Positions 12,864 to 34,222 of a stretch of 64,000 nucleotides of DNA are shown here, one piece after another. Numbering within the stretch: position 1 is the first letter of the stretch; each line of letters opens with the position of its first letter. The position numbers and the translations under genes were made by a program. This DNA is from Streptomyces sp. TLI_053 (lineage in GTDB: Bacteria > Actinomycetota > Actinomycetes > Streptomycetales > Streptomycetaceae). The notes under the pieces were generated by a model, which was given only the letters and a program-made list of their open reading frames with translations, was not told the origin of the DNA and did no database searches. The stretch is taken from the NCBI RefSeq assembly GCF_900105395.1, contig NZ_LT629775.1, forward strand, positions 8,087,501 to 8,151,500, read 5' to 3'.

Positions 12864-13103
12864 TCAGACCACTTCCCCGGGAACCCGCCCGCCGACCAGC
12901 GCCGCGAGTTCGCCGAACGTCCGGTGGGTGACGATCTCGATCGCGTCGATCTCGATCCGCAGCCGGTCCTGGATCTCGGCCGCGAGGTACACGGCCACCA
13001 CCGAGGTGCCGCCGGACTCGAAGAAGTCCGAGTCCTCGGTGACGTCCTCGCACCCGAGGAGCTCGGTCCACAGTGCCGCCAGGCGGCTGTTCACATCTGC
13101 CAC
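12864..13103 (-). CDS. Stand-alone acyl/peptidyl carrier protein
   Basis: A 79-residue four-helix carrier protein. DFFESGGTSVVAV has the Ser that takes 4'-phosphopantetheine (GGTS in place of GGDS), and the C-terminal VTHRTFGELAALV helix completes the fold. The GTG at 13103 has AGGAG about ten bases upstream; nearby GTG codons are possible alternatives. It is the last gene of the leftward operon containing the ATP-grasp ligase and the truncated NRPS. It could carry an amino acid or acyl group for either. Confidence 0.85.
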   Translation of the reverse strand: MADVNSRLAALWTELLGCEDVTEDSDFFESGGTSVVAVYLAAEIQDRLRIEIDAIEIVTHRTFGELAALVGGRVPGEVV

Positions 13104-13185
13104 GTCACACGTCTCCTGACTTGCCGGTAGGCATACCGGGGAGAAGCCCCGCCGGAGGTGGCGGGACACTCGAGGGGGAACACCG

Positions 13186-13243
13186 GGAGGAACGAACGCG
13201 CCGGGGAGGCGCGGGGAGGAACGAACGCGCCGGGCGAGCGCGG
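13186..13243. repeat. Two tandem 29-bp units
   Basis: Two 29-base direct repeats (13186-13214 and 13215-13243) share GGAGGAACGAACGCGCCGGG. They fill the gap between the ATP-grasp and carrier-protein genes. No precursor-peptide frame with a ribosome-binding site was found here. Confidence 0.75.
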
Positions 13244-13247
13244 GGAC

Positions 13248-14630
13248 TCAGGCCCCGGAACCGCCCGGCCCGGGAACCGCGAACACCGGCTTCAGCGCCC
13301 GGTCGCAGGCCCAGGCGGCGGCCAGGTCCTCGGCCACGATGCAGTACATGACCCCGTTGTTGCCGTCGAAGGCGTTGGTCAGCACGACCCCGGTCCGGGT
13401 GGCCGGGTCGTAGCGCAGGCCGGCGCCCTCCACGGCGGCGAGGGCGGCCGAGAACGAGGTGGTCGCCCAGCCCTCCGGCCACACCCGTTCGAGGACGATC
13501 CGGTCCTTGCCGAAGCCCTCGCCCACCACGATCCCGCCGATCCGGCCGTAGATGTGGGTGGAGCCGGTGACCCGGCCGTTGTACTCGGTGAAGAGCACCT
13601 CGCGGTCCGGGGTCACGATCGCGTCCGGGCCGAGGACGCCCCGGTAGCCGATCGCGTGCAGCGCCTCGGCCAGCCGGCGGCCGCCGTCGAGGATCCGTTC
13701 GAGCACCTCCGGTTCCAGGCCCTGGGAGGGCATGATCTGCCCGACCGCGTAGGGGGCGGAGAGCAGTTCGCCGTCACCGGTCAGCTCCACGCCCTCGTCG
13801 GTGAGGAGGAACTCCGAGAAGAACGCGGAGCTGTCGCGGACGTAGCGCTCCGCGACCGGCCGCCCCCGGCCGCCGGCGGTCAGCCACTCCCACCGCTCCC
13901 GCAGGTAGGCCCGCACGTCCTCGCGGCCGGCGACGGTGATCACCCGGCGGGCGCCGATCGGGCGGAAGCTCTCGCCCGTCGTCAGGACCTCGTTGCCGCG
14001 CCCGCCGGAGAGGAAGTCGTGCTTGACCATCACCGGGCCGCCGCCGAGCAGGTCCAGGATCGCCTCCTCGGCGACCTGGGGGCTGACGAGCACGGCGCCC
14101 TCCGGCATCGGCACTCCCACACCGCCGGCGACGGTCCGGAACGCCGACTTGCTGTTGACCATCACCCCGCCCGCCTGGTCCACGAAGCCGTGGCCCGGCA
14201 TCGCGTCCCGCACCCCGAGGACGGTGGCGAGCCGGGCCACCGCGGCGTCCGGCCACAGGGCCGACAGATGGGTCACCTCCCGCTCGCCGACGGCCAGTTC
14301 GAGCGCCTCGACGAACTCCGGGTCGGCCAGCCGGGCGGGGGAGAGGGTGCCCTCGCTGCCGGCGTGGGCCGGCGGGACGACGACGGTGAGGCTCTCCCGC
14401 CGCACGCCGGTCGACGAGGTCACGTACTCCAGGAAGTCCTCCTCGGGGCGCACCGGCAGGACGAGGACGTCGCCGTCCTCGGCGAACCAGGCGATCCGCT
14501 GCACCCACCAGCCGGTCCAGCCGCGGTCGGTGCGCACGTCCTCGCTGAAGTCGTTGCCGATGAGGACGCGGATGGCGTGCGCGTTCCGGGCGGCCGTCCG
14601 CGCGGTCCGCGCGCCGGGCATGATCAGCAT
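13248..14630 (-). CDS. ATP-grasp peptide ligase with pre-ATP-grasp domain (PGM1-like)
   Basis: A 460-residue protein. Residues 1-130 resemble the pre-ATP-grasp fold (IRVLIGNDFSEDV). The ATP-grasp core has MVKHDFLSGGRGNEVL for nucleotide binding and GPDAIVTPDREVLFTEYNGRVTGSTHIYG, with the Glu and Asn expected to bind Mg. The layout matches ligases such as PGM1 of pheganomycin, which activate a carboxylate as acyl phosphate and join it to the amine of a peptide or amino acid. That match is from memory of the family, not a search. An amidinotransferase and DpgA-type genes in the same cluster support a guanidino-phenylglycine substrate. Its start overlaps the NRPS stop by seven bases. No ribosomal precursor peptide was seen nearby. 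Confidence 0.75.
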   Translation of the reverse strand: MLIMPGARTARTAARNAHAIRVLIGNDFSEDVRTDRGWTGWWVQRIAWFAEDGDVLVLPVRPEEDFLEYVTSSTGVRRESLTVVVPPAHAGSEGTLSPARLADPEFVEALELAVGEREVTHLSALWPDAAVARLATVLGVRDAMPGHGFVDQAGGVMVNSKSAFRTVAGGVGVPMPEGAVLVSPQVAEEAILDLLGGGPVMVKHDFLSGGRGNEVLTTGESFRPIGARRVITVAGREDVRAYLRERWEWLTAGGRGRPVAERYVRDSSAFFSEFLLTDEGVELTGDGELLSAPYAVGQIMPSQGLEPEVLERILDGGRRLAEALHAIGYRGVLGPDAIVTPDREVLFTEYNGRVTGSTHIYGRIGGIVVGEGFGKDRIVLERVWPEGWATTSFSAALAAVEGAGLRYDPATRTGVVLTNAFDGNNGVMYCIVAEDLAAAWACDRALKPVFAVPGPGGSGA

Positions 14631-17137: not shown

Positions 17138-17328
17138 GTGGTCCCCCTTCGTGCTTCGGTGTCCGGTTGGTGCGAGGGCATGCGGGGCCGGAGGCGCGAC
17201 GGGCCGTGCCGTCGTCCCGCTGTCCCTGCTGTCCCTGTTGTCGCCGCTGTCTCTGCTGTCGCGCCGGGAGCCCGGTCCGCCCGGTCTGCCCGGTCTGCCC
17301 GGTCTGCCCGGTGAGTCCGGGAGCCCGG

Positions 17329-19191
17329 TCAGTCCGGCCGGTCGGCCGACTCGGCCCGGTCGCCGTGCCAGGAGCGCCACAGCCGGGCGTACGGACCGCC
17401 CTGCCGCACCAACTGCTCGTGGCTGCCGGTCTCGGTGATCCGGCCGTCCTCCATCACCACGACACGGTCGGCGTCGTGCGCGGTGTGCAGCCGGTGGGCG
17501 ACGGCGACGACCGAGCGCCCCGCCAGGACGGCGGCCAGGGCCCGTTCCAGCTGCCGTGCGGCGCGCGGGTCCAGGAGCGAGGTGGCCTCGTCCAGGACCA
17601 CGGCGATCGGATCGCTCAGCACCAGCCGGGCGAGGGCCAGCTGCTGCGCCTGGATCGGCGAGAGCGGCGCGGCGCCCGAGCCGACCTCGGTGTCCGGGCC
17701 GAGTTCGCAGGCCCAGTCCCAGGCGTCGACCGCCTTCAGCGCGTGTTCGAGTTCGTGCTCCGCGGCGTCCGGCCGGGCGATCAGCAGGTTGTCCCGCAGG
17801 GTGCCGCGGAAGACGTGGTGCTCCTGGGTCACCAGCGCGATCCGGCGGCGGAGTTCGGCCACCGGGACGGCCGACATCGCGGTGCCGCCGATGGTGATGG
17901 AGCCGGCGGTGGGGCTGTGCAGCCCGGCCAGCAGTCCGGCGAGCGTGCTCTTCCCGGCGCCCGACGGGCCGACGACCGCGATCCGCTCGCCGGCCCGGAT
18001 CGTCAGATCGACGGAGTGCAGGACGTCCTGGCCCTCCCGGTAGGCGTGCGACACGCCCTTCAGGACGATGTCCTTCCCGGCGCCGGTACCGCCCGTACCG
18101 CCCCTACCGCCCGGGTCGGCCGCGGTCGTACCGTCCGTGCCCGTCCCGGTCGGCCTGCCGGTCCCCGTCCCGGTCGCACCGCCCGTTTCCGTCCCGGCCG
18201 TGCTGCCCGCCTCGGACGCGGGCCCGTGCACCCCGAGGATCCGGGCCAGCGAGGCCCCGCCGACCTGCAGTTCGTCCATCCAGTACAGCAGCCGGTCCAC
18301 CGGGCCGATGATCTGCTGCACGTACAGGGTGGCCGCCGTGACGGCCGCCAGCGAGACACGGCCGTCGAGGTACAGCAGGCCGCCGATCAGCAGGGTGGCG
18401 ACCACCGGCAGCACATAGCCGGTGTCGGCGATCGGCAGGTAGACGCTGCGCAGGTACAGCGTGCGGCGCTCGGCGGCGTAGGACTCGGCGATGTCCTCGT
18501 TGACCCGTGCGAAGCGGTGGTCGGCCAGTCGCAGCGCGTCCACCGTGCGCGCCCCGTCGACGGTCTCGCCGAGGCCGCCGGTGAGCCGGGCGTACGAGGC
18601 GTTCGCCCGCAGGTAGCCGGCCCGGGCGCGGCGCAGGTACCAGGCGGTGGACAGCCACAGGACGGGCACGGCGACCAGGCACGGCAGGACCAGCACGGGT
18701 GCGGTGAGGGCCACCGCGCCCAGCGTCAGGGCGACCGTGGCGAGTGCCACCAGGGTGTCGGGGACGGCGAGTTGCACGGTGCCGGCCAGCACGTCGACGT
18801 CCCGGGTGGTCCGGGTGATCAGCTCGCCCGGGCCGGCCCGTTCCACCGTGGCCAGCGGCAGGGCGAGCACCCGGTCGACGAACTCCTCGCGCAACCGGGC
18901 GAGGACCTTCTCGCTGAGCCGCAGCGAGGCGAGCAGCGCGAAGCGGGTGAGGACGGCCTGGGCCACGACGGCGGCACCGATCGTCAGCGCGGTCCCGGTG
19001 GCGCCGTCGATGCCGCCGCCCCGGCCCGCGTCCTCGACCAGCCCGCCGAGCAGTTTCGGCGCGACCAGCCCCGCCGCGGTGGCGAGGGCGTGCAGCAGCA
19101 GGGACACCGAGAGCTGTCCCGGGTACCGGAGGGCGAGCCGCCTGGCGTAGCCGCGCACCTCGCGGGGCGTTGCGACGGGAAGGGCGCTCAT
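17329..19191 (-). CDS. ABC exporter half (canonical Walker motifs, degenerate signature)
   Basis: A 620-residue half-transporter with six membrane helices (residues 20-330) and a nucleotide-binding domain. Walker A is GPSGAGKST, the Q-loop is VTQEHH, Walker B is IAVVLDEATSLLD and the switch His is VAHRL. The signature, normally LSGGQ, reads LSPIQ. A Gly/Thr-rich linker of about 60 residues separates the two halves. Its ATG overlaps the stop of the next gene upstream (ATGA), which encodes the partner with the opposite set of defects. The pair should form a heterodimer with one working ATP site. It probably exports the cluster product or gives self-resistance. Confidence 0.88.
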   Translation of the reverse strand: MSALPVATPREVRGYARRLALRYPGQLSVSLLLHALATAAGLVAPKLLGGLVEDAGRGGGIDGATGTALTIGAAVVAQAVLTRFALLASLRLSEKVLARLREEFVDRVLALPLATVERAGPGELITRTTRDVDVLAGTVQLAVPDTLVALATVALTLGAVALTAPVLVLPCLVAVPVLWLSTAWYLRRARAGYLRANASYARLTGGLGETVDGARTVDALRLADHRFARVNEDIAESYAAERRTLYLRSVYLPIADTGYVLPVVATLLIGGLLYLDGRVSLAAVTAATLYVQQIIGPVDRLLYWMDELQVGGASLARILGVHGPASEAGSTAGTETGGATGTGTGRPTGTGTDGTTAADPGGRGGTGGTGAGKDIVLKGVSHAYREGQDVLHSVDLTIRAGERIAVVGPSGAGKSTLAGLLAGLHSPTAGSITIGGTAMSAVPVAELRRRIALVTQEHHVFRGTLRDNLLIARPDAAEHELEHALKAVDAWDWACELGPDTEVGSGAAPLSPIQAQQLALARLVLSDPIAVVLDEATSLLDPRAARQLERALAAVLAGRSVVAVAHRLHTAHDADRVVVMEDGRITETGSHEQLVRQGGPYARLWRSWHGDRAESADRPD

Positions 19192-20969
19192 GCGACCGTC
19201 ACCTCCCTGGTGACGACGGTCCGGTAGCGGGCGTCGGCAAGCAGTTCGCCGTGCCGGCCCTCGGCCACGACGGTCCCTCCCTCGACGAGCACGACGTGGT
19301 CGGCGCGGTCCAGCAGGATCGGGCTGGTGGTGAACACCACGGTCGAGCGGCCGCGCCGGTGGGCGCCCAGCCGTTCGGCGACGCGGGCCTCGGTGTGGGC
19401 GTCGAGCGCGCTGGTCGGTTCGACCAGGACCAGCGTGTCCGGGTCCGCGAGCAGGGCCCGGACCAGGTTGAGCCGTTGCCGCTGGCCGCCGGAGAACTCC
19501 CGGCCGCCGGTGATCTCCTGGTTGAGGCCCTCGGGCAGCGCCGCGACGACGTCGTGGGCCGAGGCGGTGTCGAGCGCCCTCCGCAGCCGGTCCGTGCCGC
19601 CGTCCGCGCCGGCGCCGTCGCCCGCCGTGCTGCCGCCGTCCGGGCTGCCGTCCGGGCTGCCGTCCGTGTCGCCGTCCGCCGGGCCGTGCGGATCGAGCTG
19701 GGTGGCGAGGGTGCCGGAGAACAGCCGGGCGTCGTGGTCCACCACCAGGATCCGGCGGCGCACCTCGGCGAGCGGGAACGCGGCCAGCGGGATGCCGCCG
19801 AGGGTGGCCGGGGAGTCCACGTACCGGCCGAGCCGGTCGGCCAGCAGCCGCATGTCGTCCGGCCGGGCGCAGGCGACGGCGACGAACCGGTCCGGCGGGA
19901 TCTCCAGGCCCGATCCGGGGTCCCGCAGCGGCCCCCGCGCATCCTCGGTACCGGGCTCCCGCCCGCCCGGGTCGAGCCCGGGTTCCATCGCGAGGAGGTC
20001 GGTCACCATCCGGGCCGCGACGAACGCCCTGGTCAGCTGGTCGACCATGGAGGTCGCGCGGCGCAGCTGCTCGGCGAGGAAGACGGCGTACCCGTAGAAG
20101 GCGACCAGCGCGCCCGGGCTCATCCGGCCGGTGCCGACGAAGTGGGCCCCGAGCCAGACGATCACCGTGACGAGGAGCCCGGGCAGCAGCAGCCGTCCGG
20201 CGGCCACGCTCGACTCCACCCCCGCGACCCGGACCCCCTCGTGGCGCACCCGCTGCGAGCGCTCGCGGTACCGGTCGGCGAAGACCCGCTCGCCGCCGAT
20301 GCCGCGCAGGACCCGGAGGCCGTCGACGATGTCCACGGCGAGGTCCGCCAGCGCGCCCTGTTCCTTCCGCAGGCCGTGCTGCCTGGTGTGCAGCAGCCGC
20401 ATCAGCGCGGCGATCGCCGCCGCCGACAGCGGTACGCCCACCAGGGCGACCAGGCCGAGCTGCCAGGAGACGGTCAGCATGACGCCGGCGACGACCGCGA
20501 TGGACACCACGGCGCCGCCGCCGCGGGCGGTGCTCTCCAGGGCGGCGCCGATCCGGGTGATGTCGGTGGCACCGACGCTCACCACCGTCCCGGCGGAGAC
20601 CCGGTGGGGCAGTTCCGCGCCCAGCCGGGCCGCCTTGCGGGTGACGAGCTGCATGGTGCGGTAGGCGGCCCCGAACCGGTTGGTCACCGAGCAGCGGTCG
20701 CGCAGGGTGCCGGCCACGGCCTGGGTGACGCCGAGCCCGAGGACCACGGCGCACCAGGTGACCAGCGCACCCCGGTCCCCGGCGATGAGCCCCCGGTCGA
20801 CCCCGCGGCCGATCGCGGCGGGCACGAAGGCCTGGGCCAGGGTGCAGAGCACGCCGTAGCCGACGGCGAGGACCGCGGAGGCGCGGTGGGCGGACGCGAG
20901 CCACAGCAGGTAGCGGCCGGGGGAGCCGAGGGCGGGCTCGCCGGGGTCGGGTTCGGGGAAACGGTGCAT
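19188..20969 (-). CDS. ABC exporter half (degenerate Walker motifs, canonical signature)
   Basis: A 593-residue half-transporter with six membrane helices (about residues 30-310). In its nucleotide-binding domain, ACARPDDMRLLADRL stands where Walker A should be, the Q-loop Gln is Asp (VVDHDAR), Walker B has lost its Asp (TLVLVEPTSALD) and the switch His is Ser (FTTSPILL). The signature FSGGQRQRLNLVRALL is intact. It therefore supplies the signature for the ATP bound by its partner, encoded directly downstream. A Gly/Asp repeat linker (DGDTDGSPDGSPDGG) interrupts the domain near residue 455. Confidence 0.88.
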   Translation of the reverse strand: MHRFPEPDPGEPALGSPGRYLLWLASAHRASAVLAVGYGVLCTLAQAFVPAAIGRGVDRGLIAGDRGALVTWCAVVLGLGVTQAVAGTLRDRCSVTNRFGAAYRTMQLVTRKAARLGAELPHRVSAGTVVSVGATDITRIGAALESTARGGGAVVSIAVVAGVMLTVSWQLGLVALVGVPLSAAAIAALMRLLHTRQHGLRKEQGALADLAVDIVDGLRVLRGIGGERVFADRYRERSQRVRHEGVRVAGVESSVAAGRLLLPGLLVTVIVWLGAHFVGTGRMSPGALVAFYGYAVFLAEQLRRATSMVDQLTRAFVAARMVTDLLAMEPGLDPGGREPGTEDARGPLRDPGSGLEIPPDRFVAVACARPDDMRLLADRLGRYVDSPATLGGIPLAAFPLAEVRRRILVVDHDARLFSGTLATQLDPHGPADGDTDGSPDGSPDGGSTAGDGAGADGGTDRLRRALDTASAHDVVAALPEGLNQEITGGREFSGGQRQRLNLVRALLADPDTLVLVEPTSALDAHTEARVAERLGAHRRGRSTVVFTTSPILLDRADHVVLVEGGTVVAEGRHGELLADARYRTVVTREVTVA

Positions 20970-20977
20970 GGGGGTGT

Positions 20978-22021
20978 CTAAGCCTTCGTGCCGAGGGTGA
21001 GGCCGTGCTCGTAGGGGAGTCCGGTGACGGTGCGCACCTCGGTGAAGCCCACCCGGCGCAGCCACTCCTCGTAGTCCTTGGCCGGGTAGGCCATGCCGCG
21101 GCCGCTGGCGAGCACGTTGAAGTAGAGGCCCAGCCGGGCGGAGAAGATGCCCTCGGTCTCGTCGTCGGACACGTTGAAGCCGTAGACGAAGACCTGGCCG
21201 CCGGCGGGCAGGGCGTCGTACGCCTTGGTCAGCAGGGCGAGGATCTGCTCCTCGGCGAAGATCTCCAGGACGTGGCTGAAGAGCACGGCGTCGGCACCGG
21301 ACGGGAACGCGTCCTCGAAGATGTCGCCGGGGTGCAGCTCCACCCGGTCGGCGAGTTCGGCGGCCGCGCCGTCGCCGGCGAGCCGCGACACGCTGGGCAT
21401 GTCGAAGACGGTGGCCCGCAGTCCGGGGCGGCGCCGGGCGAACTCGGCGGAGGTGGTGCCGTCGCCGCCGCCGATGTCGAGCAGGTGCTTCACCGCGGCG
21501 AACTCGTCGCGTTCGACCAGGGCGTCGAGGCTGCGCAGGGTGAAGGCGCTCATCGCCCGGTGGAACACCGCCTCCAGTCCGGGGTTGCGGGACAGGCGCT
21601 GGTAGAGCGTGGGTTCGTCGCCGGGGTGGTCGGCGAGCGCCGTGTTGGTGCCGGCGCGCAGCGCCCGGGTCAGGTGCGAGAAGGCCGGGTAGTAGACCTC
21701 CTTCCAGCCCACCAGGATGTGGGACCAACTGTCCGGCGCGTCCGTCGCCAGCAGGTCACCGGCCACCGCGGAGTTGGCGTACAGGCCGTCGGTCCTGGTC
21801 AGGAGGCCGGTCGAGCAGACGCCCTGGAGGAGTACCCGGAGCTGGTGGGCGGGGACGCCGGTGACGGCGTGGAGCTGTTCGAACGAGGCCCGGTCGTGTT
21901 CCCCGAGGTAGCGGAAGACGCCGAGTTCGACGGCTGTCGTCACGGCGTTGAAGAGCGCGGGCGCGTTCACCAGGAACCGGAAGCGCTCGTAGACCGGATC
22001 ACCTTCGTGCACGTTGCTCAT
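20978..22021 (-). CDS. SAM-dependent O-methyltransferase (Methyltransf_2 type)
   Basis: A 347-residue protein. An N-terminal winged-helix dimerisation domain (residues 10-100, LFNAVTTAVELGVFRYL) precedes a catalytic domain with LLDIGGGDGTTSAEFARRRPGLRATVFDMPSV (SAM motifs I-II) and HPGDIFEDAFPSGADAVLFSHVLE (motifs III-IV). This is the layout of small-molecule O-methyltransferases that act on phenols. It is the first gene of the leftward operon, eight bases before the ABC pair, so it likely tailors the cluster product, perhaps a resorcinol hydroxyl. The ATG at 22021 is chosen for its 12-base spacing to AGAAGGGA; an ATG at 22033 overlaps that site. Confidence 0.85.
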   Translation of the reverse strand: MSNVHEGDPVYERFRFLVNAPALFNAVTTAVELGVFRYLGEHDRASFEQLHAVTGVPAHQLRVLLQGVCSTGLLTRTDGLYANSAVAGDLLATDAPDSWSHILVGWKEVYYPAFSHLTRALRAGTNTALADHPGDEPTLYQRLSRNPGLEAVFHRAMSAFTLRSLDALVERDEFAAVKHLLDIGGGDGTTSAEFARRRPGLRATVFDMPSVSRLAGDGAAAELADRVELHPGDIFEDAFPSGADAVLFSHVLEIFAEEQILALLTKAYDALPAGGQVFVYGFNVSDDETEGIFSARLGLYFNVLASGRGMAYPAKDYEEWLRRVGFTEVRTVTGLPYEHGLTLGTKA

Positions 22022-22566
22022 CTGGACGAGCATTCCCTTCTGGACCGTCGGTGGAGGACTTCCCGAAGCGCGACAACTCGGAACGCAAAAGGCGGAGAAC
22101 CCGGGAACGCCCGGGGGAATGCGGGCGGCCCGAGCGGAACGATCCTCGCGGGGCCGCCGGTCAGGGGATCCACGGCCCGGACCGGCCCGGTGGACATCCC
22201 GGTGCCCAGCAGATGGTACGTCACATTGCACCGCTGGGCGAGCCCTCGGGATCAAGAAGCTCGGCGCGGACGACTGTGTGGGCTTATGGGTGAATCATCC
22301 CGCAGGTCACGAAGCCCCTTTCGGTGTCGGGGTCTTGACGCGCGGTCGGGCGGGATGAAGTGATGGTGTGCGACGCAGCGCCCCCCGAAGCGCATGTGAC
22401 GATCCCTCAGGCCACCGGACATCGGTCCGGGAGGTCCGGGCGTCCCGGTTCCGGCGCGATTCCGCCCCCCCTGGCCGTGAGCGACGAACGGCCTGCCGCA
22501 CCCCGTGATCACCCTGGTTCCCGGACCGTTCACGTGCCGACGGAACCACCACTGGAGGAGCCCGCG
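22022..22566. promoter_or_regulatory. Divergent promoter region of the two main operons
   Basis: 545 bases without a convincing gene between the leftward O-methyltransferase operon and the rightward amidinotransferase operon, so both promoters should lie here. TTGACG at 22335-22340 on the plus strand is a possible -35 element, but no good -10 follows at the right distance. No clear operator dyad was found. The lower-GC patches at 22070-22090 and 22210-22290 are the likeliest promoter sites. Confidence 0.5.
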
Positions 22567-25090: not shown

Positions 25091-25827
25091 CGGAAGGAAT
25101 GGCGGTCACGATGCACGCGAACCTCGACCCGACCCCGCTGCCCGACGGACTCGGCCCCGAGGTGAGGATCGACGGATCCCGGCCGCTGGCCGACCTGACC
25201 GCGGCGGTGAACGCCGTCTGCGACGAGGTGGAGAACCGGCCCGAGCGGTCCGTCGTGGTGCTGCGGCTCGACGTCACCCCGGCCGGCTCCAGGGCCTGGC
25301 CCGGCGCCGTCGACGTCCGGCAGGTCAACCGCTGGGAACGGGCCGTGCGCCGGTTCGAGCGCCTGGCCGCGATGACCATCGCCGCCGCGCACGGCGCCTG
25401 CGGCGGCCCCGCCCTGGACCTCCTGCTGGCCGCGGACTTCCGGATCGGCGCACCGGACCTGCTGCTGATGGTGCCCGTCAACGACGGCCACTTCTGGCCC
25501 GGCATGTCGCTCTACCGGCTGGTCCAGCACCTCGGGGTCGCCAGGGCCCGGCAGATCGTCATGTGGGGCAACGACATCTCGGTCGACCGGGCGCTGGAAC
25601 TCGGCCTGATCGACCAGCTCAGCGAGGACGTCGCGGAGGCGGTGCACACCGCGACCGTGCTGATGGGGCGGATCTCGGACCGGGAACTGGCCGTCCGCCG
25701 CCAGCTCCTGCTGGAGGCCGGCTCGGCCGACTACGACGGAGCCCTGGGCGCCCACCTGGCCGCCTGCGACCGCGAGCTGCGCCGGCTGGCCGCCGCGGCC
25801 CCGGGGACACCGGGGAGCCCCCGGTGA
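25087..25827 (+). CDS. dpgB: DpgB-like enoyl-CoA hydratase/isomerase-fold protein
   Basis: A 246-residue crotonase-fold protein. RLAAMTIAAAHGACGGPALDLLLAADFRIGAPDLLLMVPVNDGHFWPGMSLYRLVQHLG covers the first oxyanion-hole strand and helix; VDRALELGLIDQL is the usual crotonase continuation. DpgB raises DpgA turnover and aids aromatisation in known dihydroxyphenylglycine pathways; DpgD-like dehydration is the alternative. The GTG start at 25087 overlaps the dpgA stop (GTGA); an ATG at 25099 is also possible. The overlap implies the two are made in equal amounts. Confidence 0.75.
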   Translation: MTEGMAVTMHANLDPTPLPDGLGPEVRIDGSRPLADLTAAVNAVCDEVENRPERSVVVLRLDVTPAGSRAWPGAVDVRQVNRWERAVRRFERLAAMTIAAAHGACGGPALDLLLAADFRIGAPDLLLMVPVNDGHFWPGMSLYRLVQHLGVARARQIVMWGNDISVDRALELGLIDQLSEDVAEAVHTATVLMGRISDRELAVRRQLLLEAGSADYDGALGAHLAACDRELRRLAAAAPGTPGSPR

Positions 25828-25927
25828 CGGCTCCGGCCCTGGCGGCCCGGGACCGCGGCCGGCACCTCCCGGCCGGGGTCCGTCGGCAGCGCACCCCGGC
25901 CCGGCAGCAGCGCTCCTCGGCCCGCCG

Positions 25928-27232
25928 GTGAACCCCCGCCCGGTCCGCCTGGACGCCACCTCGCTGCACGCCTCGCTGGCGGAACCCGTACTCGGCTCGA
26001 TCGGCTTCCTCAACGAGATCATGGCCCGCTATCCGGACGCCGTCTCCTTCGCACCGGGCGCCCCCCACCCGGACCTGCTGCCCGACCTCGAACCCGGGCG
26101 CTACCTCGACCGCTTCCTCGACCACCTCGTCCGGGACCGGGGCCACACCCCGGACCGGGCGCGCCGGCTGCTGCTGGAGTACGGGCCGAGCCGCGGGCTG
26201 ATCGGGGACCTCGTCGCCGGGGCGCTGCGCCGGGACCACGCCGTCGACGTGCCGGAGGCGGCGGTGGTGGTGACCGTCGGCGCCCAGGAGGCCATGTTCC
26301 TGACGCTGCGCACCCTGTTCGGCTCCCGTGGGGACGTGCTCGCCGTCGCCGACCCCTGCTTCGTCGGCATCAGGGGGGCCGCCCGGCTGCTCGACATCGA
26401 CCTGGTCGGGGTCGAGGAGACCCCGCTCGGGCTCGACCTCGACGCCCTGGCGGCGCGCTGCCGGACCGCCCGCGGCACCGGCCGGCGGGTCCGCGCGTGC
26501 TACGTCGCGCCCGACTTCGCCAACCCGGGCGGCGGCCGGATGCCGCTGGAGGTCCGCCACCGCCTGCTCGAACTCGCCGAGCTCGAGGACTTCCTGGTGC
26601 TGGAGGACAACGCCTACGGCTTCACCGCGGCGCCCGGGGCGGAGCTGCCGTTGCTCAAGGCCCTGGACCGGAACCGGCGGGTGGTGCACCTGGGGACCTT
26701 CGCCAAGGTCTGCTTCCCCGGCGCCCGGGTCGGCTACGTGGTCGCGGACCAGGAGGTCGTCCGCCCGGGCGGACCCGCGACCCTGCTGGCCGACGAACTC
26801 GCGGCCGCCAAGAGCATGGTGACCGTCAACACCTCCCCGGTCTGTCAGGCCGTGATCGGCGGCATGCTGCTGGAGCACGGCGGCTCGCTGATGGCGCTCA
26901 GCCGGCGCAAGTCGGAGCTCTACCGGCGGAACCTCGGCCACCTCGCCGAGGAGCTGGACCGCCACGCGGCCGACGGCCTGCCCGACGGGATCAGCTGGAA
27001 CCGGCCCGAGGGCGGGTTCTTCGTCCGGATGACGCTGCCGGTGCCCGCCGACACCGCCCTGCTGGAGCGGTCGGCGGCCGAGTACGGCGTGCTGTGGACG
27101 CCGATGGCGCCGTTCCACCTCGGCTCCGGGGGCGACCACCGGCTGCGGCTCTCCTGCAGCTACCTCGACCCCGGGCAGATCGAGACCGGGGTCGCGCGGC
27201 TCGCCGGGTTCCTGCGGAAGGAGGTCCGATGA
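25928..27232 (+). CDS. PLP-dependent class I aminotransferase, HpgT-like
   Basis: A 434-residue fold-type I aminotransferase. It has ISFAPGAP-type entry (VSFAPGAPHPDL), VTVGAQEAMFLTLRTLF, CYVAPDFANPGGGRMPLEVRHRLLEL and the PLP lysine in HLGTFAKVCFPGARVGYV. HpgT enzymes convert 4-hydroxy- or 3,5-dihydroxyphenylglyoxylate into the phenylglycine, and the MocR-like C-terminal layout fits that group. The GTG start follows a 100-base gap after dpgB with no other frame in it. The stop overlaps the next ATG (ATGA). Substrate is inferred from the neighbours. Confidence 0.8.
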   Translation: MNPRPVRLDATSLHASLAEPVLGSIGFLNEIMARYPDAVSFAPGAPHPDLLPDLEPGRYLDRFLDHLVRDRGHTPDRARRLLLEYGPSRGLIGDLVAGALRRDHAVDVPEAAVVVTVGAQEAMFLTLRTLFGSRGDVLAVADPCFVGIRGAARLLDIDLVGVEETPLGLDLDALAARCRTARGTGRRVRACYVAPDFANPGGGRMPLEVRHRLLELAELEDFLVLEDNAYGFTAAPGAELPLLKALDRNRRVVHLGTFAKVCFPGARVGYVVADQEVVRPGGPATLLADELAAAKSMVTVNTSPVCQAVIGGMLLEHGGSLMALSRRKSELYRRNLGHLAEELDRHAADGLPDGISWNRPEGGFFVRMTLPVPADTALLERSAAEYGVLWTPMAPFHLGSGGDHRLRLSCSYLDPGQIETGVARLAGFLRKEVR

Positions 27233-28482
27233 CGCACCCGCCCGAGCCGTCCGCGCTCCCGGTCCGGTCGTCCCCGCGCCCCGCCCGGCCGGCCCCGCTC
27301 CCGGCCCCGCTGCCCACGGAACGGCCCAACCCCTTCGACCCGCCGACCGGACTGGCCGACCACCGCGGCGGGGAGCCGATCCGCCCGCTCGCCTACCCGG
27401 ACGGCCACACCGGCTGGCTGGTGACCGGCCACGCCCTGGCGCGGAGCGTGCTGGCGGACCCGAGGTTCAGTGCCGGCTCCGAACTCAAACGGGCTCCCGT
27501 GGCCCGACCCGGCGCCGAGCCCTTCTTCGGCGCCCCGGCACTGCCCGGCTGGATGGTCGACATGGACCCACCCGCCCACACCCGGGTCCGCCGGCCGCTG
27601 GCCGCCACCTTCACCGCCCACCGGATGAAGGCCCTGCGGCCGCGGATCGAACAGCTCGTCGACGAACACCTCACCGCGACGGCCGACGCGGCGCCACCGG
27701 CGGACCTGGTCGAGCGGTTCGCGCTGCCGGTGACCTCGCTGGCGATCTGCGAACTCCTCGGTGTGCCCTACCGGGAGCGGGCCGCCTTCCAGCACGACAG
27801 CGCCCTGCTGTTCAGCCTGGACGCCTCCGCCGGGGAAGCCGCCCTGGCGATGGAGCGCCTGGACGGGTTCCTGCGGGAACTCACCCGGAGCAGGCGGGCC
27901 CGGCCCGGCGACGACGTGCTGAGCATGCTCGTCCGGGACGGCACCCTGAGCACCGAGGAGATCGCCGGCGCCGGTGTCCTGCTGCTCACCGCCGGACACG
28001 GGACGACCGCGAGCTCGCTCGCCCTCGGGACCTTCGCCCTGCTGTCGCACCCCGGGCAACTGGCCGCGCTGAAGAGCGATCCGGCGCTCGCCGACAACGC
28101 GGTGGAGGAACTGCTGCGCTATCTGACGATCTTCCACTTCGGGGTCCCGCGCACTCCGCTGGAGGACCTCGAGCTCGGGGGACGGCTGCTCAGGGCGGGG
28201 GAGTCGGTGACGGTGTCGCTGTCGGCGGCCAACCGGGACCCGGCGCGGTTCGCCGACCCCGACCGGCTGGACCTCTCCCGGCGGACCACGGGCCATCTGG
28301 CCTTCGGCCACGGGATCCACCAGTGCCTGGGCCGGAACCTGGCGCGGACCGAGATGCGGGTCGCCTTCCCCGCCCTCTTCCGACGCTTCCCCGGCCTGGC
28401 CCTGGCGGTGCCGCCGGAGGAGGTCCCGCTCGCCACCGACATGGGCTTCTACGGGGTGCACCGGCTCCCGGTCACCTGGTGA
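27229..28482 (+). CDS. Cytochrome P450 (I-helix acid replaced by Gly)
   Basis: A 417-residue soluble P450. It has the ExxR pair in VEELLRYLTIFHFGVPR, the heme loop FGHGIHQCLGRNLARTE and the I-helix LLTAGHGTTASSLAL. In most P450s the I-helix reads AGxE/DT; here the acid is Gly, which affects proton delivery. GGAAGGAGGT lies three bases before the ATG, and the gene overlaps the aminotransferase stop. A proline-rich N-terminal 30 residues precedes the fold. It might hydroxylate the aromatic ring or oxidise the benzylic carbon, a step done by DpgC in known pathways. Confidence 0.9.
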   Translation: MTHPPEPSALPVRSSPRPARPAPLPAPLPTERPNPFDPPTGLADHRGGEPIRPLAYPDGHTGWLVTGHALARSVLADPRFSAGSELKRAPVARPGAEPFFGAPALPGWMVDMDPPAHTRVRRPLAATFTAHRMKALRPRIEQLVDEHLTATADAAPPADLVERFALPVTSLAICELLGVPYRERAAFQHDSALLFSLDASAGEAALAMERLDGFLRELTRSRRARPGDDVLSMLVRDGTLSTEEIAGAGVLLLTAGHGTTASSLALGTFALLSHPGQLAALKSDPALADNAVEELLRYLTIFHFGVPRTPLEDLELGGRLLRAGESVTVSLSAANRDPARFADPDRLDLSRRTTGHLAFGHGIHQCLGRNLARTEMRVAFPALFRRFPGLALAVPPEEVPLATDMGFYGVHRLPVTW

Positions 28483-28608
28483 GCCCGATGCCCCACGCCC
28501 GACGCCCGCGCCCGCCGCAGGTCCCGCCCCCGCCCCCGGGCCCGCCCCGCACCGACCCAGCCCCGCGCCGACCCGACCGCCCCGGCCCACGACGAGTGAG
28601 AGGGAACC

Positions 28609-29526
28609 ATGCACGGCACCACCATCTCGGCCATCGGATACGAGTGCGGCGACATCCGCCCGGTCTCCGACCTGGCCGGGACCACGACCGCGGACATCTC
28701 CCCGCTGGTCACCGAGATCGTCCACTTCCGGGAGAGCCGCCGCGAGATCTGGGACCTCGCGGCCGGCGCCGCCGAGCGGACCCTCGCCACCGCAGCCCGG
28801 CCCGACCTCGTGCTCTACGTCAGCGAGAACGACCCGGACACCACCGGCTCGCTGGCCCGGATCCTGGACCGGCTCGGCCTCAACGACGTCGAGCACCTCG
28901 CCCTGTCCGGGCAGGACTGCGGCAACCTGGTCCCCGCCGTCCGGGTGGCATCCGACGCCCTGGCCTCCGGCCGGGCCGAGCGCGTCCTGCTGCTGCTCGC
29001 CGACCGGGCGGAGGGCCGGGACCGGATCATGGCGAGCGGCCTGTCCGTGTTCAGCGACGGGGCCGCCGCGTGCCTGCTCTCCCGCGGACCGGAGCCGGCC
29101 GGCCCCCGGCTCCGGGTGGAGGCCGCCGGCAGCCGCACCGCCGTCCGTCCGGCCGACGCGGACCCCGCCGGACAGGGGCTGCTCTCGACCGTCCGGCTGG
29201 CCTCCGAGACCGTCACCGCCCTGCTCGCCGGCCTCGGGCGGACCGGCGCCCCGTTCCGGTACGCGATCCTGCCCAACTACCGCCCGGCCGCCCAGAAGTT
29301 CCTGCTCGCGGCCATGCGGATGCCCCCCGACAGGCTCCTGCTCGGGCCCGTCACCGAACTCGGGCACTGCTTCTCGGCGGACCTCCTGATCACCCTGCAC
29401 CGGCTGGCCGCCGCGGGCGCGCTCGATCCCGGGGACCGCCTCCTGCTCGCGACCGGCGGACCGTACTCCTGGTCGGCCCTGGCGGTCGAGTACACGCACG
29501 ACGACGGCCCGGCCCCGTGTCGATGA
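28609..29526 (+). CDS. KAS III-like thiolase-fold protein with rearranged active site
   Basis: A 305-residue thiolase-fold protein related to 3-oxoacyl-ACP synthase III. The nucleophile Cys is present in LALSGQDCGNLVPAVRVASDAL. The position of the catalytic His (HQAN in FabH) reads PNYRP, and the catalytic Asn (GNTSAAS) reads ELGHCFSADLL, so the Cys-His-Asn triad is Cys-Asn-His as aligned by eye. Such proteins often act as acyltransferases making esters or amides instead of C-C bonds. GAGAGGGAAC precedes the ATG. It could transfer an acyl group to the phenylglycine or a carrier-bound intermediate. Confidence 0.75.
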   Translation: MHGTTISAIGYECGDIRPVSDLAGTTTADISPLVTEIVHFRESRREIWDLAAGAAERTLATAARPDLVLYVSENDPDTTGSLARILDRLGLNDVEHLALSGQDCGNLVPAVRVASDALASGRAERVLLLLADRAEGRDRIMASGLSVFSDGAAACLLSRGPEPAGPRLRVEAAGSRTAVRPADADPAGQGLLSTVRLASETVTALLAGLGRTGAPFRYAILPNYRPAAQKFLLAAMRMPPDRLLLGPVTELGHCFSADLLITLHRLAAAGALDPGDRLLLATGGPYSWSALAVEYTHDDGPAPCR

Positions 29527-29608
29527 CGCGGGCGCGGCCGGCCGCACCGAAGTCCGAAGGCCCATCCACCACGTGCCCCGCCCCGGGGCCGCACCCGGCA
29601 GGTGTCTC

Positions 29609-30355: not shown

Positions 30356-30367
30356 CGGAGGACCACC

Positions 30368-31393
30368 GTGCACGTCTACTCCGTGACCCCGGAATCGGCA
30401 AGCCAGCAGCGTGAGTTCGAGCAGGACTACCTCTCCCGGCTGCGGGAGGCCGGAGCGTCCTGCGAGCGCGCGGGCTGGTCGGGCATCCTCGTCCCGCACA
30501 ACCTCCACGAGGTCGACCCCTGGCTGATCGCCGGCCAGCTCGGCGCCGCGACCGACACCCTCGTCCCGCTCGTCGCCGTCCAGCCCTCCTCGGTGCCGCC
30601 CCACACCGCCGCCGCGATGGCCGCGGCGTACGCGACCCTGTACGGGCGCCCGCTGCACTTCAACCTGGTCGCCGGCGCCCGGGACGACGAACTGCGCCGC
30701 ACCGGCGACCGACTCGGCCACGACGAGCGGTACGAGCGGATGCGCGAGTACGGGACGGTGCTGCGCGCACTGCTGCGCGGCGAGGAGGTCGACACCGAGG
30801 GCCGCTTCTACACCTACCGCGGGTTCCGGCTGGAGCCCCGGCCCGAAGTCCTCTCGCAGTGCAAGCTGTTCGTCGCCGGCTCCTCCCCGGCCAGCATCGG
30901 AGTGGCCAGGGACGTCGCCGACGTGGTGGTCACCCACCCCGCCCGCTACCCGGAGTGGGAGGAGACCTTCCTGAAGCCGCTGCTGGCCGGCGGCTACACC
31001 GGCGAGCTCGGGATCCGGATCGGCATCGTCGCCGGGCCGGACCGGGAGGACGCCTGGGCGACGGCCCGGGAACGGTTCCCCGAGACCTGGCGGGGGCGGC
31101 AGGAGACGCTGCTCAAGACCGTCTCGCAGAACTCCTGGTCGCGTCAGCTGGCCGTCGACGCCGTGGCCGAGGCCGCCGCGGCCGCCGACGCGGCGCCGGA
31201 CACGTACTGGCTGGGAGCCTTCCGCAGCGGCCACGCCAGCGCGCCGTTCCTGGTCGGCAGCCACGACGACGTCGGCTCCCGGCTCGCGGAGTACCTGCGC
31301 GCGGGGGTCGGGCACGTTCTGCTCAACGGCAGCTACGAGGACGACCACGAGGACATCAACCGGGCACTCCTCGCGGCTCGGCACACGCCCTAG
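30368..31393 (+). CDS. SsuD-like flavin-dependent monooxygenase (LLM class)
   Basis: A 341-residue luciferase-like TIM barrel of the alkanesulfonate-monooxygenase type. It has CERAGWSGILVPHNLHEVDPWLIAGQLG, LVPLVAVQPSSVPPHTAAAMAAAYATLYG, HFNLVAGARDDELRRTGD (FMN loop) and FVAGSSPASIGVARDVADVVVTHPA. These enzymes use reduced FMN and oxygen for oxidation or C-heteroatom cleavage. In biosynthetic clusters they often hydroxylate carrier-bound substrates. The GTG start has ACGGAGGACC five bases upstream, 12 bases after the previous stop. It is one candidate for the oxidation normally done by DpgC. Confidence 0.85.
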   Translation: MHVYSVTPESASQQREFEQDYLSRLREAGASCERAGWSGILVPHNLHEVDPWLIAGQLGAATDTLVPLVAVQPSSVPPHTAAAMAAAYATLYGRPLHFNLVAGARDDELRRTGDRLGHDERYERMREYGTVLRALLRGEEVDTEGRFYTYRGFRLEPRPEVLSQCKLFVAGSSPASIGVARDVADVVVTHPARYPEWEETFLKPLLAGGYTGELGIRIGIVAGPDREDAWATARERFPETWRGRQETLLKTVSQNSWSRQLAVDAVAEAAAAADAAPDTYWLGAFRSGHASAPFLVGSHDDVGSRLAEYLRAGVGHVLLNGSYEDDHEDINRALLAARHTP

Positions 31394-31448
31394 AGCTCGA
31401 CGGCCGACCGGCCGTGTCCGACTGTCGATGCACGGAGGGGTGGAGAAG

Positions 31449-33350
31449 TTGAGTCTTGTCGTACGGAGCGGTCCGCTCACCGAACAGCAGGAACGCTGGT
31501 GGCTGCGGCTCTACTGGCGGGAGAAGGGGGACATCGACAACGCCTGGTCCAAGCGCTGGGACCTCCCGGCGGGGGTGTCCGTCGCGGCGGCGACGGCGGC
31601 GCTGACGGCACTGGTCGAGCGGCACGAGGTGCTCAGGACCGGGTTCGGGCTCGGACCGGACCACCTGCCGTACCAACTGGTCTTCGCCGCCGAGGGGTTC
31701 CGTCTGCCGCTGACCGTCGCCGGGCTGGACACCCTGGCGGAGTACACCGACGAGGGCGGGATCCACCCGCTCGTCGGCGGCTCGATGTACACCCGGCCGC
31801 CGTGGTCGGTGCGGCTGTTCGTCGAGGACGACGAGGTGCGGGTGCTCAGCCTGGTGTTCGAGCACATCCTGCTCGACGGATCCGGGGTGCGGAACCTCCG
31901 GGAACAGTTCCTGGCCCTCTGCGGCGAGGGGCCCGGCGGAGCCCTGCGGATCACCCACCCGCTCGACCGGGCGGCCGGGGAGCGCCGGACCCCGCGGACC
32001 CCGGAGGGCCGGCCGGCGCGCAGCCGGGACCCCAGGGAGCTGGCGCCCAGGCTGCTGGTGCCGGCCACCGTGAAGGAGGAGACCCCGGAGCCGCGGTTCC
32101 TGATGTCCGCGGTGCGCTACGAGGGGTTCCTGCCGCTGCTGGACCGGGTCTGCCGGACCCACCGGGTGTCCCGGGCCATGGTCCTGATGCACGCCGTCGG
32201 CTGGCTGATCTCCCGCTACTCGGGCATCCCCCGGATCATGGTCGTCAACGCGATCGGCCTGCGGCTGCCCAGCGACGACAGCGTCGACCTGGTCGCCAAG
32301 GCGATGGAGGTCATGGTGGACCTCGACGAGGACCGGACGCTGGCGGAGTCCCTGACCGCCGTCGCGGCCGGGTTCCTCCGCGCGTACACCGAGGAACTGC
32401 GGCTGGGCCTCCGGGACCAGGACGCCCGCCTGCGGCTGGAGAAGGAGCGCGGCATCGGCTCCGTCCGGGGCCTCTACTTCAACTACCAGGGCCCGTCCGA
32501 GCCGGACACCCCGGAGCCGGCCGGGAGCCCCTCCGTCCCGGAGACCGGAGTCTCCCGCACCGACGAGTGGCGCTCCGGCGAGGAGCCCTGGAGCTACGCC
32601 ACCTGGATCTACGTCGACGGCACCACGGTCTCCGTCGACTTCGACGTCGACGCGGTGATGCTCCCGGCCGGCGTCGTCCACCGCATGGCCGAACTGCTGC
32701 CCGCGTTCGTCCGGCTGGTCGCCGAGCGGCCGGACGCCCCGCTGTCCGCCGCCCGCACGCTGCTCCCGCCGGACTTCGCCCGGGACACCGAGGCGCGGCT
32801 GGTGCGGGGGACGTGGGTCCACCTCGACACCGTCGCCGGGGTGATCGCCGGCTGCCCCGGGGTGCTCGCCGCCGAGGCGGCCGAGGAGGACGGGGACATC
32901 GTGGCCCGGGTGTCGCTCGACGGGTCGTCCTGCCTGTTCGACGTGCACGAGTACGTGCTCTCCCGGCTCCACCTGGAGGGCGACCTGATCGCGCCCCACC
33001 GGTACCGCCTCGCCGGGGGCAGCGCGAGCCGGGCCACCGGCCCCGGCCTGCCCGACCTGGCGGCCGGCGCGGAGTGGCGGCCGGGCGACGGCACCCCGGT
33101 GCTCGGTCCGGCCACCGAGCCCGAGCGCGAACTCGTCGCGGCCCTCCAGGAGACCCACGGCTTCGGGGCGGTCAACCTGGCCCTCACCTACGCGGAGGCC
33201 GGCGGCCGCGCGATCCTCGCCCCCGCCGTGGTCGAGACCCTGCGCCGCCGTGGTCTCGAGGGCCTGCGACTCCCGCACTTCGCCACCGCGCACACCCTGC
33301 GGGCCGTCGCCGGGGCGCTGGTCCGGCGGACGCCCGGCCACGCGCCCTGA
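31449..33350 (+). CDS. Condensation-domain protein with decayed A/PCP tail
   Basis: A 633-residue protein. Residues 1-440 form a condensation domain: PLTEQQERWWL at the N-terminus and VLSLVFEHILLDGSG at the active site, so the first His of HHxxxDG is Glu138 while His139 and Asp143 remain. Later come YFNYQGPSE and YATWIYVDGTTVSVDFD. Residues 470-530 look like the small C-terminal subdomain of an adenylation domain without its Lys. The last 75 residues look like a PCP whose GGDS is EAGGRAI, so it cannot be pantetheinylated. TTG at 31449 is chosen because GGAGGGG lies eight bases before it; the ATG at 31428 has no such site. It ends the operon. It may be a free-standing amide-forming enzyme. Confidence 0.8.
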   Translation: MSLVVRSGPLTEQQERWWLRLYWREKGDIDNAWSKRWDLPAGVSVAAATAALTALVERHEVLRTGFGLGPDHLPYQLVFAAEGFRLPLTVAGLDTLAEYTDEGGIHPLVGGSMYTRPPWSVRLFVEDDEVRVLSLVFEHILLDGSGVRNLREQFLALCGEGPGGALRITHPLDRAAGERRTPRTPEGRPARSRDPRELAPRLLVPATVKEETPEPRFLMSAVRYEGFLPLLDRVCRTHRVSRAMVLMHAVGWLISRYSGIPRIMVVNAIGLRLPSDDSVDLVAKAMEVMVDLDEDRTLAESLTAVAAGFLRAYTEELRLGLRDQDARLRLEKERGIGSVRGLYFNYQGPSEPDTPEPAGSPSVPETGVSRTDEWRSGEEPWSYATWIYVDGTTVSVDFDVDAVMLPAGVVHRMAELLPAFVRLVAERPDAPLSAARTLLPPDFARDTEARLVRGTWVHLDTVAGVIAGCPGVLAAEAAEEDGDIVARVSLDGSSCLFDVHEYVLSRLHLEGDLIAPHRYRLAGGSASRATGPGLPDLAAGAEWRPGDGTPVLGPATEPERELVAALQETHGFGAVNLALTYAEAGGRAILAPAVVETLRRRGLEGLRLPHFATAHTLRAVAGALVRRTPGHAP

Positions 33351-34184: not shown

Positions 34185-34222
34185 CCGCACTCCTGCGCTC
34201 ACTGATCGGATGGTGGCCGGCC

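What the first reader, a model, noticed from the sequence alone, without database searches (positions are those of the whole stretch)
12864..33350. Guanidino-phenylglycine-type cluster built into a PKS/NRPS system
The sequence shows an amidinotransferase, DpgA-like PKS, DpgB-like protein, HpgT-like aminotransferase and a PGM1-like ATP-grasp ligase in neighbouring operons. Those families together make guanidino-phenylglycines and their peptides in pheganomycin and resorcinomycin. Here they stand beside a tandem-AT PKS, two A-PCP NRPS proteins and a formyltransferase, a mix I do not know from any described cluster.
Basis: partly seen in the sequence, partly recalled or inferred. Interest (0 to 1): 0.78.

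Follow-up and report, generated by a model that had tools for sequence, protein, structure and literature searches.

The report
Guanidino-phenylglycine gene island beside unrelated PKS
A soil bacterium carries a self-contained set of genes that probably builds a small peptide capped with a guanidine-bearing aromatic amino acid; it sits next to, but is probably not part of, a polyketide gene set, and it has lost one enzyme that the cell may supply from elsewhere.

Summary
Its coordinates 12864-33350 match a discrete 15-gene island (g12-g26): amidinotransferase, DpgA, DpgB, HpgT-like aminotransferase, PGM1-type ATP-grasp ligase, one A-PCP, a free PCP, a free condensation protein, a KAS-III-like acyltransferase, two methyltransferases, a luciferase-like monooxygenase, a P450 and an ABC pair. 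The proposed mix with the tandem-AT PKS, second A-PCP and formyltransferase is not supported as one unit: three genomes with the island lack the formyltransferase, a fourth has it on another contig, and nine Kitasatospora genomes have the PKS set without the island. One close relative shows the empty site; another keeps only the ABC pair. The island is of the pheganomycin/resorcinomycin kind, with an added carrier-protein arm. Two points are new. dpgC, present in 27 of 29 related dpgA loci, is gone here, leaving a 35-codon frame that I read as its scar; the genome holds two other dpgC genes. And the KAS-III-like protein has the ChlB3 acyltransferase triad, so it probably moves acyl groups. The product is unknown; I infer a guanidino-dihydroxyphenylglycyl cap joined by the ligase to one carrier-modified amino acid.

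The parts
12864..13094 (-). g12 free-standing peptidyl carrier protein
   Evidence: Pfam PP-binding 5e-14; matches in CBMA123, S465, K. humi, MAP5-34 and G108
13248..14630 (-). g13 PGM1-type ATP-grasp peptide ligase
   Evidence: 446 bits to PGM1 3wvq; about 52% identity
14624..17137 (-). g14 A-PCP with a weak condensation-domain remnant at its N terminus; A-domain code DAMHVGGLVK
   Evidence: Pfam; code nearly constant in 5 orthologues
17329..19158 (-). g15 ABC exporter half
   Evidence: Pfam; kept with g16 alone in G007
19188..20969 (-). g16 ABC exporter half
   Evidence: Pfam
20978..22033 (-). g17 Methyltransf_2-family methyltransferase, probably on the resorcinol ring
   Evidence: Pfam 1.8e-28; role inferred
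22567..23727 (+). g18 amidinotransferase
   Evidence: PDB homologues SxtG, inosamine-phosphate amidinotransferase, AGAT; tree
24029..25090 (+). g19 DpgA type III PKS
   Evidence: NF042429 621 bits, cut-off 425
25099..25827 (+). g20 DpgB
   Evidence: NF042431 245 bits, cut-off 140
25824..25931 (+). 35-codon open frame read as the scar of a deleted dpgC, with 4-base overlaps to dpgB and to the HpgT gene
   Evidence: DpgC in 27 of 29 other DpgA loci
25928..27232 (+). g21 HpgT-like aminotransferase
27229..28482 (+). g22 cytochrome P450
   Evidence: Pfam 9.7e-28
28609..29526 (+). g23 KAS-III-like acyltransferase, triad C104-H253-D258
   Evidence: Pfam ACP_syn_III; alignment to ChlB3; conserved residues
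29609..30355 (+). g24 methyltransferase, probably O-methyltransferase of COMT-like fold
   Evidence: AlphaFold model pLDDT 70.6; Foldseek top list holds Rv0187, catechol O-methyltransferases and TomG, TM about 0.56, rmsd 5-6
30368..31393 (+). g25 luciferase-like flavin monooxygenase
   Evidence: Pfam Bac_luciferase 3e-31; fused to a g24 homologue in G108
31440..33350 (+). g26 free-standing condensation protein with a C-terminal carrier-like part without the attachment Ser
   Evidence: Pfam 1.7e-7; E/D-H-xxx-DG motif and no Ser in all 5 aligned
33483..45391 (-). NOT part of the island: neighbouring set g27 formyltransferase, g28 P450, g29 KS, g30 A-PCP, g31 PKS (with g32 MFS at 46001-47347 +)
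   Evidence: independent occurrence

Best explanation
About 12.8-33.4 kb holds a separate biosynthetic island next to an unrelated Kitasatospora PKS/NRPS/formyltransferase cluster. SHOWN: gene content, conservation as a set, occurrence apart from the neighbour, absence of dpgC. INFERRED: (1) DpgA and DpgB make 3,5-dihydroxyphenylacetyl-CoA. (2) DpgC, missing here, is supplied by another locus of the genome, and the HpgT-like enzyme makes dihydroxyphenylglycine. (3) g17 and the P450 decorate the ring, and the amidinotransferase puts a guanidine on the alpha-nitrogen. (4) g14 activates one amino acid on its PCP; the KAS-III-like enzyme g23 moves it, for example to the free PCP g12; monooxygenase g25 and methyltransferase g24 modify it there; g26 condenses or releases it. 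(5) The PGM1-type ligase joins the guanidino-aryl acid to its amine, and the ABC pair exports the product: a small guanidino-arylglycyl peptide related to resorcinomycin and pheganomycin, with a carrier-built amino acid in place of free glycine or a ribosomal peptide.
For: Set conserved: all 15 genes g12-g26 matched in Streptomyces sp. CBMA123 (60-89%, two contigs) and S465 (54-83%); 12 of 15 in K. humi (not DpgA, DpgB, HpgT); 14 of 15 in MAP5-34 (not the P450), in the stretches read. Independence: formyltransferase orthologue absent from S465, K. humi and MAP5-34 and on another contig in CBMA123; formyltransferase in 12 of 70 genus genomes, g23 homologue in 9 of 70, both only in the window genome and CBMA123. 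Empty site: G072 collinear to window 11737 and again from 33483; G007 lacks 12808-17351 and 21005-33427 but keeps the ABC pair at 92-94% DNA identity. Amidinotransferase clade. PGM1. DpgC in 27 of 29 other DpgA loci, two copies elsewhere in the genome. Triad C104/H253/D258 as in ChlB3 Cys113/His296/Asp301 (PMC9573744, passages). Natural g24-g25 fusion in G108, 52% and 68%.
Against: G339 and G108 hold most of the island but no amidinotransferase anywhere at E 0.001, so guanidine is not essential to this gene set. CBMA123 and S465 carry further NRPS genes right beside g12, and G108 beside the ABC pair, so in relatives the carrier arm may feed a longer peptide. The A-domain code fits no substrate that I can name. 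The g23 model is poor (pLDDT 62). In S. violaceusniger an amidinotransferase of another cluster type also lies about 8 kb from the formyltransferase set, which I cannot explain. Only the formyltransferase, not the PKS, was searched for in S465, K. humi and MAP5-34. The role of g26 is unknown.
Confidence: 0.6

Rival explanations
1. One hybrid assembly line: the guanidino-arylglycine is a building block of the tandem-AT PKS, the two A-PCP proteins and the formyltransferase.
For: Direct adjacency, 132 bp between g26 and g27. A similar adjacency, with a different guanidino cluster, in S. violaceusniger NBRC 13459.
Against: Three island genomes lack the formyltransferase; nine genus genomes have the PKS set and no g23 homologue; different contigs in CBMA123; empty site in G072.
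Confidence: 0.06
2. The island is decaying: without dpgC no dihydroxyphenylglycine is made and the locus is silent or makes a truncated product.
For: dpgC missing; relative G007 has only the ABC pair.
Against: The other genes have normal codon-position GC and length; two dpgC genes over the family cut-off elsewhere in the genome; K. humi also lacks Dpg genes in its island and has a Dpg operon on another contig.
Confidence: 0.15
3. The amidinotransferase acts on the A-domain's amino acid and the Dpg unit stays unamidinated.
For: Homology fixes the reaction, not the acceptor; ketomemicin clusters have an amidinotransferase and their product bears the guanidine on an N-terminal valine, leucine or isoleucine (PMC11943689, passages).
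Against: The amidinotransferase lies among those of DpgA-type clusters.
Confidence: 0.13
4. It is simply a resorcinomycin or pheganomycin cluster, and the carrier-arm genes are passengers.
For: PGM1, amidinotransferase, DpgA and aminotransferase shared; a graspetide survey names an NRPS gene in the pheganomycin cluster too (PMC8939145, passages).
Against: g12, g14, g23, g24, g25 and g26 are all present in 6 of the 7 genomes found to carry g24 at 73% identity or more (not in G339; in CBMA123 on two contigs). No conserved short precursor ORF found. The ligase is about 52% identical to PGM1 but 68-85% to its four island orthologues.
Confidence: 0.06

Closest known systems
Pheganomycin biosynthesis (Noike et al. 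2015; primary paper not read, described in passages of PMC8939145 and PMC13417212)
   Same: PGM1-type ATP-grasp ligase, type III PKS, aminotransferase, amidinotransferase
   Different: No precursor-peptide gene found; KAS-III-like acyltransferase, free PCP, free condensation protein and monooxygenase/methyltransferase pair present; dpgC missing. Whether the pheganomycin cluster lacks these was not tested: its sequence was not at hand
Resorcinomycin biosynthesis (Ooya et al. 2015; only a table row and the reference seen)
   Same: Guanidino-dihydroxyphenylglycine type (recalled)
   Different: Cluster sequence not available here; gene-by-gene comparison not done
Ketomemicin (ktm)
   Same: ATP-grasp ligase plus amidinotransferase (PMC11943689, passages)
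   Different: Per that paper six genes, independent of ribosome and NRPS; no Dpg genes among the six
ChlB3 / CerJ / AfcL KAS-III-like acyltransferases
   Same: Cys-His-Asp triad with His and Asp five residues apart in ChlB3 and g23; AfcL is assigned a peptide-bond-forming release from a carrier (PMC12186527, passages)
   Different: Very low similarity (E 4e-4 to ChlB3); activity untested
G068, G089 and G091 NRPS clusters (same genus)
   Same: Ligase 47-48%, amidinotransferase 70-71%, g23 homologue 42-43%, ABC pair
   Different: Many NRPS-type matches; no DpgA in the 36-40 kb read

Membership tests
Pheganomycin/resorcinomycin-type guanidino-arylglycine cluster | PGM1-type ATP-grasp ligase | tested here: met
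   446 bits to 3wvq; PGM1_C domain
Pheganomycin/resorcinomycin-type guanidino-arylglycine cluster | DpgA-type III PKS with aminotransferase | tested here: met
   NF042429 and NF042431 above cut-off; HpgT-like by 50% identity to part of an 815-aa protein of a Dpg locus
Pheganomycin/resorcinomycin-type guanidino-arylglycine cluster | Amidinotransferase of the clade of DpgA-bearing clusters | tested here: met
   tree of 89 rows; the pheganomycin and resorcinomycin enzymes themselves were not among the rows by name
Pheganomycin/resorcinomycin-type guanidino-arylglycine cluster | Complete Dpg pathway in the cluster (DpgC) | tested here: not met
   DpgC absent from the cluster, present elsewhere in the genome
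Pheganomycin proper | Ribosomal precursor peptide gene | tested here: inconclusive
   21 short ORFs in or beside the gaps; I read the conserved ones as ends of neighbouring genes or their antisense; a divergent precursor could be missed
Pheganomycin/resorcinomycin-type guanidino-arylglycine cluster | Guanidino-arylglycine product | not testable with these tools
   needs LC-MS
Hybrid PKS/NRPS cluster including g27-g32 | Conserved co-occurrence of both sets | tested here: not met
KAS-III-like acyltransferase (ChlB3/CerJ) | Cys-His-Asp triad in a KAS III family protein | tested here: met
   own fold model too weak to add
KAS-III-like acyltransferase (ChlB3/CerJ) | Acyl transfer without C-C bond formation | not testable with these tools
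   needs enzyme assay
Any MIBiG entry | Same gene set described | not testable with these tools
   MIBiG not held; in the listings and passages I saw no description of this set

The most novel reading that the evidence does not exclude
A new group of guanidino-arylglycyl peptides in which an ATP-grasp ligase caps an amino acid that was oxygenated, methylated and handed over by a KAS-III-like acyltransferase on carrier proteins, in this strain without a modular NRPS. Its aryl precursor pathway is split over the chromosome: dpgA, dpgB and the HpgT gene lie here, an orphan dpgC-dpgD pair lies about 7 Mb away beside two NRPS genes, and the two loci depend on each other.
Probability: 0.25. Interest if true: 0.65.

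Novelty: new variant of a known kind. Interest (0 to 1): 0.48.

Why it matters
It corrects a cluster boundary that is easily drawn too wide, and points to a recurring gene group (seven genomes found, five of them with the amidinotransferase) with an unusual joining logic: ligase plus carrier-bound modification plus KAS-III-like transfer. If the split Dpg pathway is real, it is a clean case of one natural-product cluster that has given up an essential enzyme and relies on another, testable by single gene deletions.

Tried and rejected
Rejected: one hybrid cluster (see rivals). Rejected: the P450 or the monooxygenase as a replacement for DpgC, because S465 and CBMA123 carry both together with DpgC. 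Left open: substrates of the A domains (codes DAMHVGGLVK and DMMNVGAVCK; read against a recalled PheA reference; no match I trust). Fold search of the g23 model was not run because the model is weak. The two distant dpgC copies are not strong evidence alone: 23 of 70 genus genomes carry a DpgC at E 1e-100. The orphan DpgC is not especially close to the island DpgCs (55-61%, against 60-72% among the three island DpgCs), so I do not claim that it is the relocated gene; its DpgD neighbour is 79% identical to the DpgD in the CBMA123 island. The scar test is weak alone: its C-terminal match to four DpgC ends was reached by 9 of 5000 shuffles, its start resembles only one of the three DpgC starts printed, and blastn gave E 0.017. 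Searches that led nowhere: papers; tRNA genes, none; PDB relatives of g24 and g26, none.
Full report
WHERE IT IS. The window is G000:C1:8087501-8151500 of a 9.9-Mb single-contig genome. I infer the genus Kitasatospora (GTDB sense): two genomes marked as the same genus, G066 and G086, have contigs of exactly the lengths of named contigs of K. humi (372569) and K. sp. MAP5-34 (107751).

THE OBSERVATION. Gene calls by codon-position GC and Pfam/NCBIfam scans confirm the named genes. The tandem-AT PKS (g31, ACP-KS-AT-AT-ACP-C), the second A-PCP (g30), a KS, a P450 and the formyltransferase (g27) follow at 33483-45391, all on the minus strand.

TWO GENE SETS, NOT ONE. A scan of named genomes with the amidinotransferase gave 76 loci (the best 80 of 162 confirmed stretches); their gene content is. 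In the stretches read, g12-g26 are all matched in Streptomyces sp. CBMA123 (two contigs) and S465; in MAP5-34 all but the P450; in K. humi all but DpgA, DpgB and HpgT. A formyltransferase at 86% or more was found in 2 of the 8 genomes asked (CBMA123, S. violaceusniger); S465, K. humi and MAP5-34 had only weak hits of E 8e-9 or worse. The PKS itself was not searched for there. In CBMA123 the formyltransferase set lies on another contig. In the genus, 12 of 70 genomes have the formyltransferase at E 1e-30 and 9 of 70 a g23 homologue at E 1e-20; only the window genome and CBMA123 are in both lists. Of the 11 other formyltransferase genomes, 10 have the P450, KS, A-PCP and PKS beside it (the PKS partly cut by the stretch in several); G070 (73% formyltransferase) does not. 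Leaving out CBMA123, nine genomes thus have the PKS set without a g23 homologue. Of these 11 genomes the ABC pair stands beside the formyltransferase only in G007; I read at least about 3 kb beyond the formyltransferase in each.

EMPTY SITE AND REMNANT. By blastn G072 is collinear with the window up to 11737 and again from 33483: the island is absent. G007 is collinear up to 12807 (with a gap before 12005), then has only 17352-21004 (the ABC pair), then continues from 33428. The ABC pair is 92-94% identical in DNA, like the flanks (92-95%), and in S465, CBMA123, K. humi and MAP5-34 it sits inside the set. The simplest reading is that the common ancestor had the island and G007 lost the biosynthetic genes on both sides while keeping the exporter. 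Gain on both sides of the pair in the window lineage is possible but costs more steps.

WHAT KIND OF CLUSTER. The ligase scores 446 bits against PGM1, about 52% identity. Amidinotransferase homologues are common (17 of 61 relatives at E 0.001, mostly distant). In a tree of 89 rows the window pairs with CBMA123 (99/97) inside a 25-row starred set, 13 with DpgA in the stretch and 12 without it or a PGM1-like ligase; 24 rows, 23 with a PGM1-like ligase and none with DpgA, form a separate clade (100/100), to which ketomemicin may belong (not tested). In one search, 21 short ORFs were found in or beside the gaps; I read the conserved ones as ends of neighbouring genes or their antisense, so no precursor peptide was found.

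THE MISSING DPGC. In S465, CBMA123 and MAP5-34 a gene over the NF042432 cut-off (DpgC) lies before HpgT, and in S465 and MAP5-34 it directly follows DpgB (in CBMA123 a contig break intervenes). Of 29 DpgA-bearing amidinotransferase loci other than the window, 27 have DpgC (summed tblastn bits over 150); of the two misses L021 is cut at a contig end and its DpgC is on the other contig, and L041 has none in the stretch held. In the window 100 bp remain. They lie in a 35-codon frame that begins in a GTGA overlap with the dpgB stop and ends in a GTGA overlap with the HpgT start, as dpgC does in S465 by my called starts. Its last residues resemble DpgC C termini; 9 of 5000 shuffles score as high. 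I read it as a deletion scar; an assembly error is not excluded. The genome has two other DpgC genes over the cut-off and one other DpgA. One DpgC belongs to a DpgA-D operon with an 815-aa protein that I read as an Hmo-HpgT fusion, and with NRPS-like genes (2.93 Mb; MbtH-, HmaS- and halogenase-like neighbours are my reading by length and start of sequence). The other is an orphan dpgC-dpgD pair at 1.06 Mb near two NRPS-like genes, with no DpgA, DpgB or HpgT match listed in the 85 kb or the 40 kb. K. humi likewise lacks Dpg genes in its island stretch and has a Dpg operon on another contig. Background: 23 of 70 genus genomes carry a DpgC.

THE CARRIER ARM. g23 has Asn where FabH has the first active His, and Cys104, His253 and Asp258, present in all 7 sequences aligned and invariant in the 4. 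ChlB3 uses Cys113-His296-Asp301 (PMC9573744, passages), with the same His-Asp spacing; the printed alignment sets the two GH...D motifs together. AfcL, of the same kind, is assigned a peptide-bond-forming release (PMC12186527, passages). So g23 is more likely an acyltransferase than a ketosynthase. g24 has a COMT-like fold (on a model of pLDDT 70.6; TM about 0.56). A g24 homologue is fused to a g25 homologue in G108 (52% and 68%). g24 homologues (44%) and luciferase-like genes stand near each other in two other loci, G212 and G068 C2, so the two probably act in sequence. g26 keeps the second His and DG of the condensation motif, but its C-terminal carrier-like part lacks Ser in all 5. The A-domain code of g14 is nearly constant in 5.

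COUNTER-EVIDENCE. A search with g24 found 13 of 394 family genomes at E 1e-30, 6 of them at 73% or more including the window; with S465 that makes seven. Two of the seven, G339 and G108, hold most of the island but no amidinotransferase anywhere at E 0.001, and each has a DAO-family FAD enzyme in the locus. The amidinotransferase is thus present in 5 of 7. G339 also shows no g12 or g26 among its called genes and has two other condensation proteins. In CBMA123 and S465 further NRPS genes lie right beside g12, in G108 beside the ABC pair, and in K. humi and MAP5-34 two ATP-grasp proteins follow g26; the window has none of these. So the relatives' products may be longer or different. In S. violaceusniger the formyltransferase set again lies about 8 kb from an amidinotransferase, of another cluster type.

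LITERATURE. In the listings and the passages I saw no description of this gene set. The library holds open-licence papers only and MIBiG was not available. The primary pheganomycin and resorcinomycin papers were not read.

VERDICT. A real, recurring, separate island of the pheganomycin/resorcinomycin kind with a carrier arm: a new variant of a known kind. The claim of a PKS hybrid is not supported.

Noticed in passing
window 33483-47347: The neighbouring formyltransferase/P450/KS/A-PCP/PKS set recurs in 11 of the 12 formyltransferase genomes among 70 of the genus (the MFS gene too where the stretch reaches). Its free KS has Asn where the HGTGT His should be and its tandem ATs have unusual motifs (read by eye). 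Product unknown.
   Followed up: partly
L144-L147 and L153-L154 (S. violaceusniger NBRC 13459): Another guanidino cluster type with two amidinotransferases, DpgA/B/C and many PKS- and NRPS-type matches, about 8 kb from the formyltransferase set; paired loci also in Saccharopolyspora flava (L049, L081), NRRL F-5630 (L045, L090) and S. samsunensis (L057, L086).
   Followed up: partly
L134-L139 (G068, G089, G091): NRPS-rich loci with PGM1-like ligase, amidinotransferase, KAS-III-like protein and the ABC pair, without DpgA in the stretch read.
   Followed up: no
L200:12733-14379: Natural fusion of a g24-type methyltransferase with the luciferase-like monooxygenase.
   Followed up: yes
L173 (G000 about 2.915-2.935 Mb): DpgA-D operon with a probable Hmo-HpgT fusion and NRPS-like genes: a second Dpg-using locus in the same genome.
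   Followed up: partly
L059, L061, L062: Amidinotransferase relatives of 71-72% in rhizobia; Agrobacterium cavarae L059 also has DpgA, DpgB, DpgC and a PGM1-like ligase.
   Followed up: no
window 57648-63998 +: Genes that look by eye like the start of a type I CRISPR-Cas operon (Cas3-, Cse1-, Cse2-, Cas7-like); not searched.
   Followed up: no
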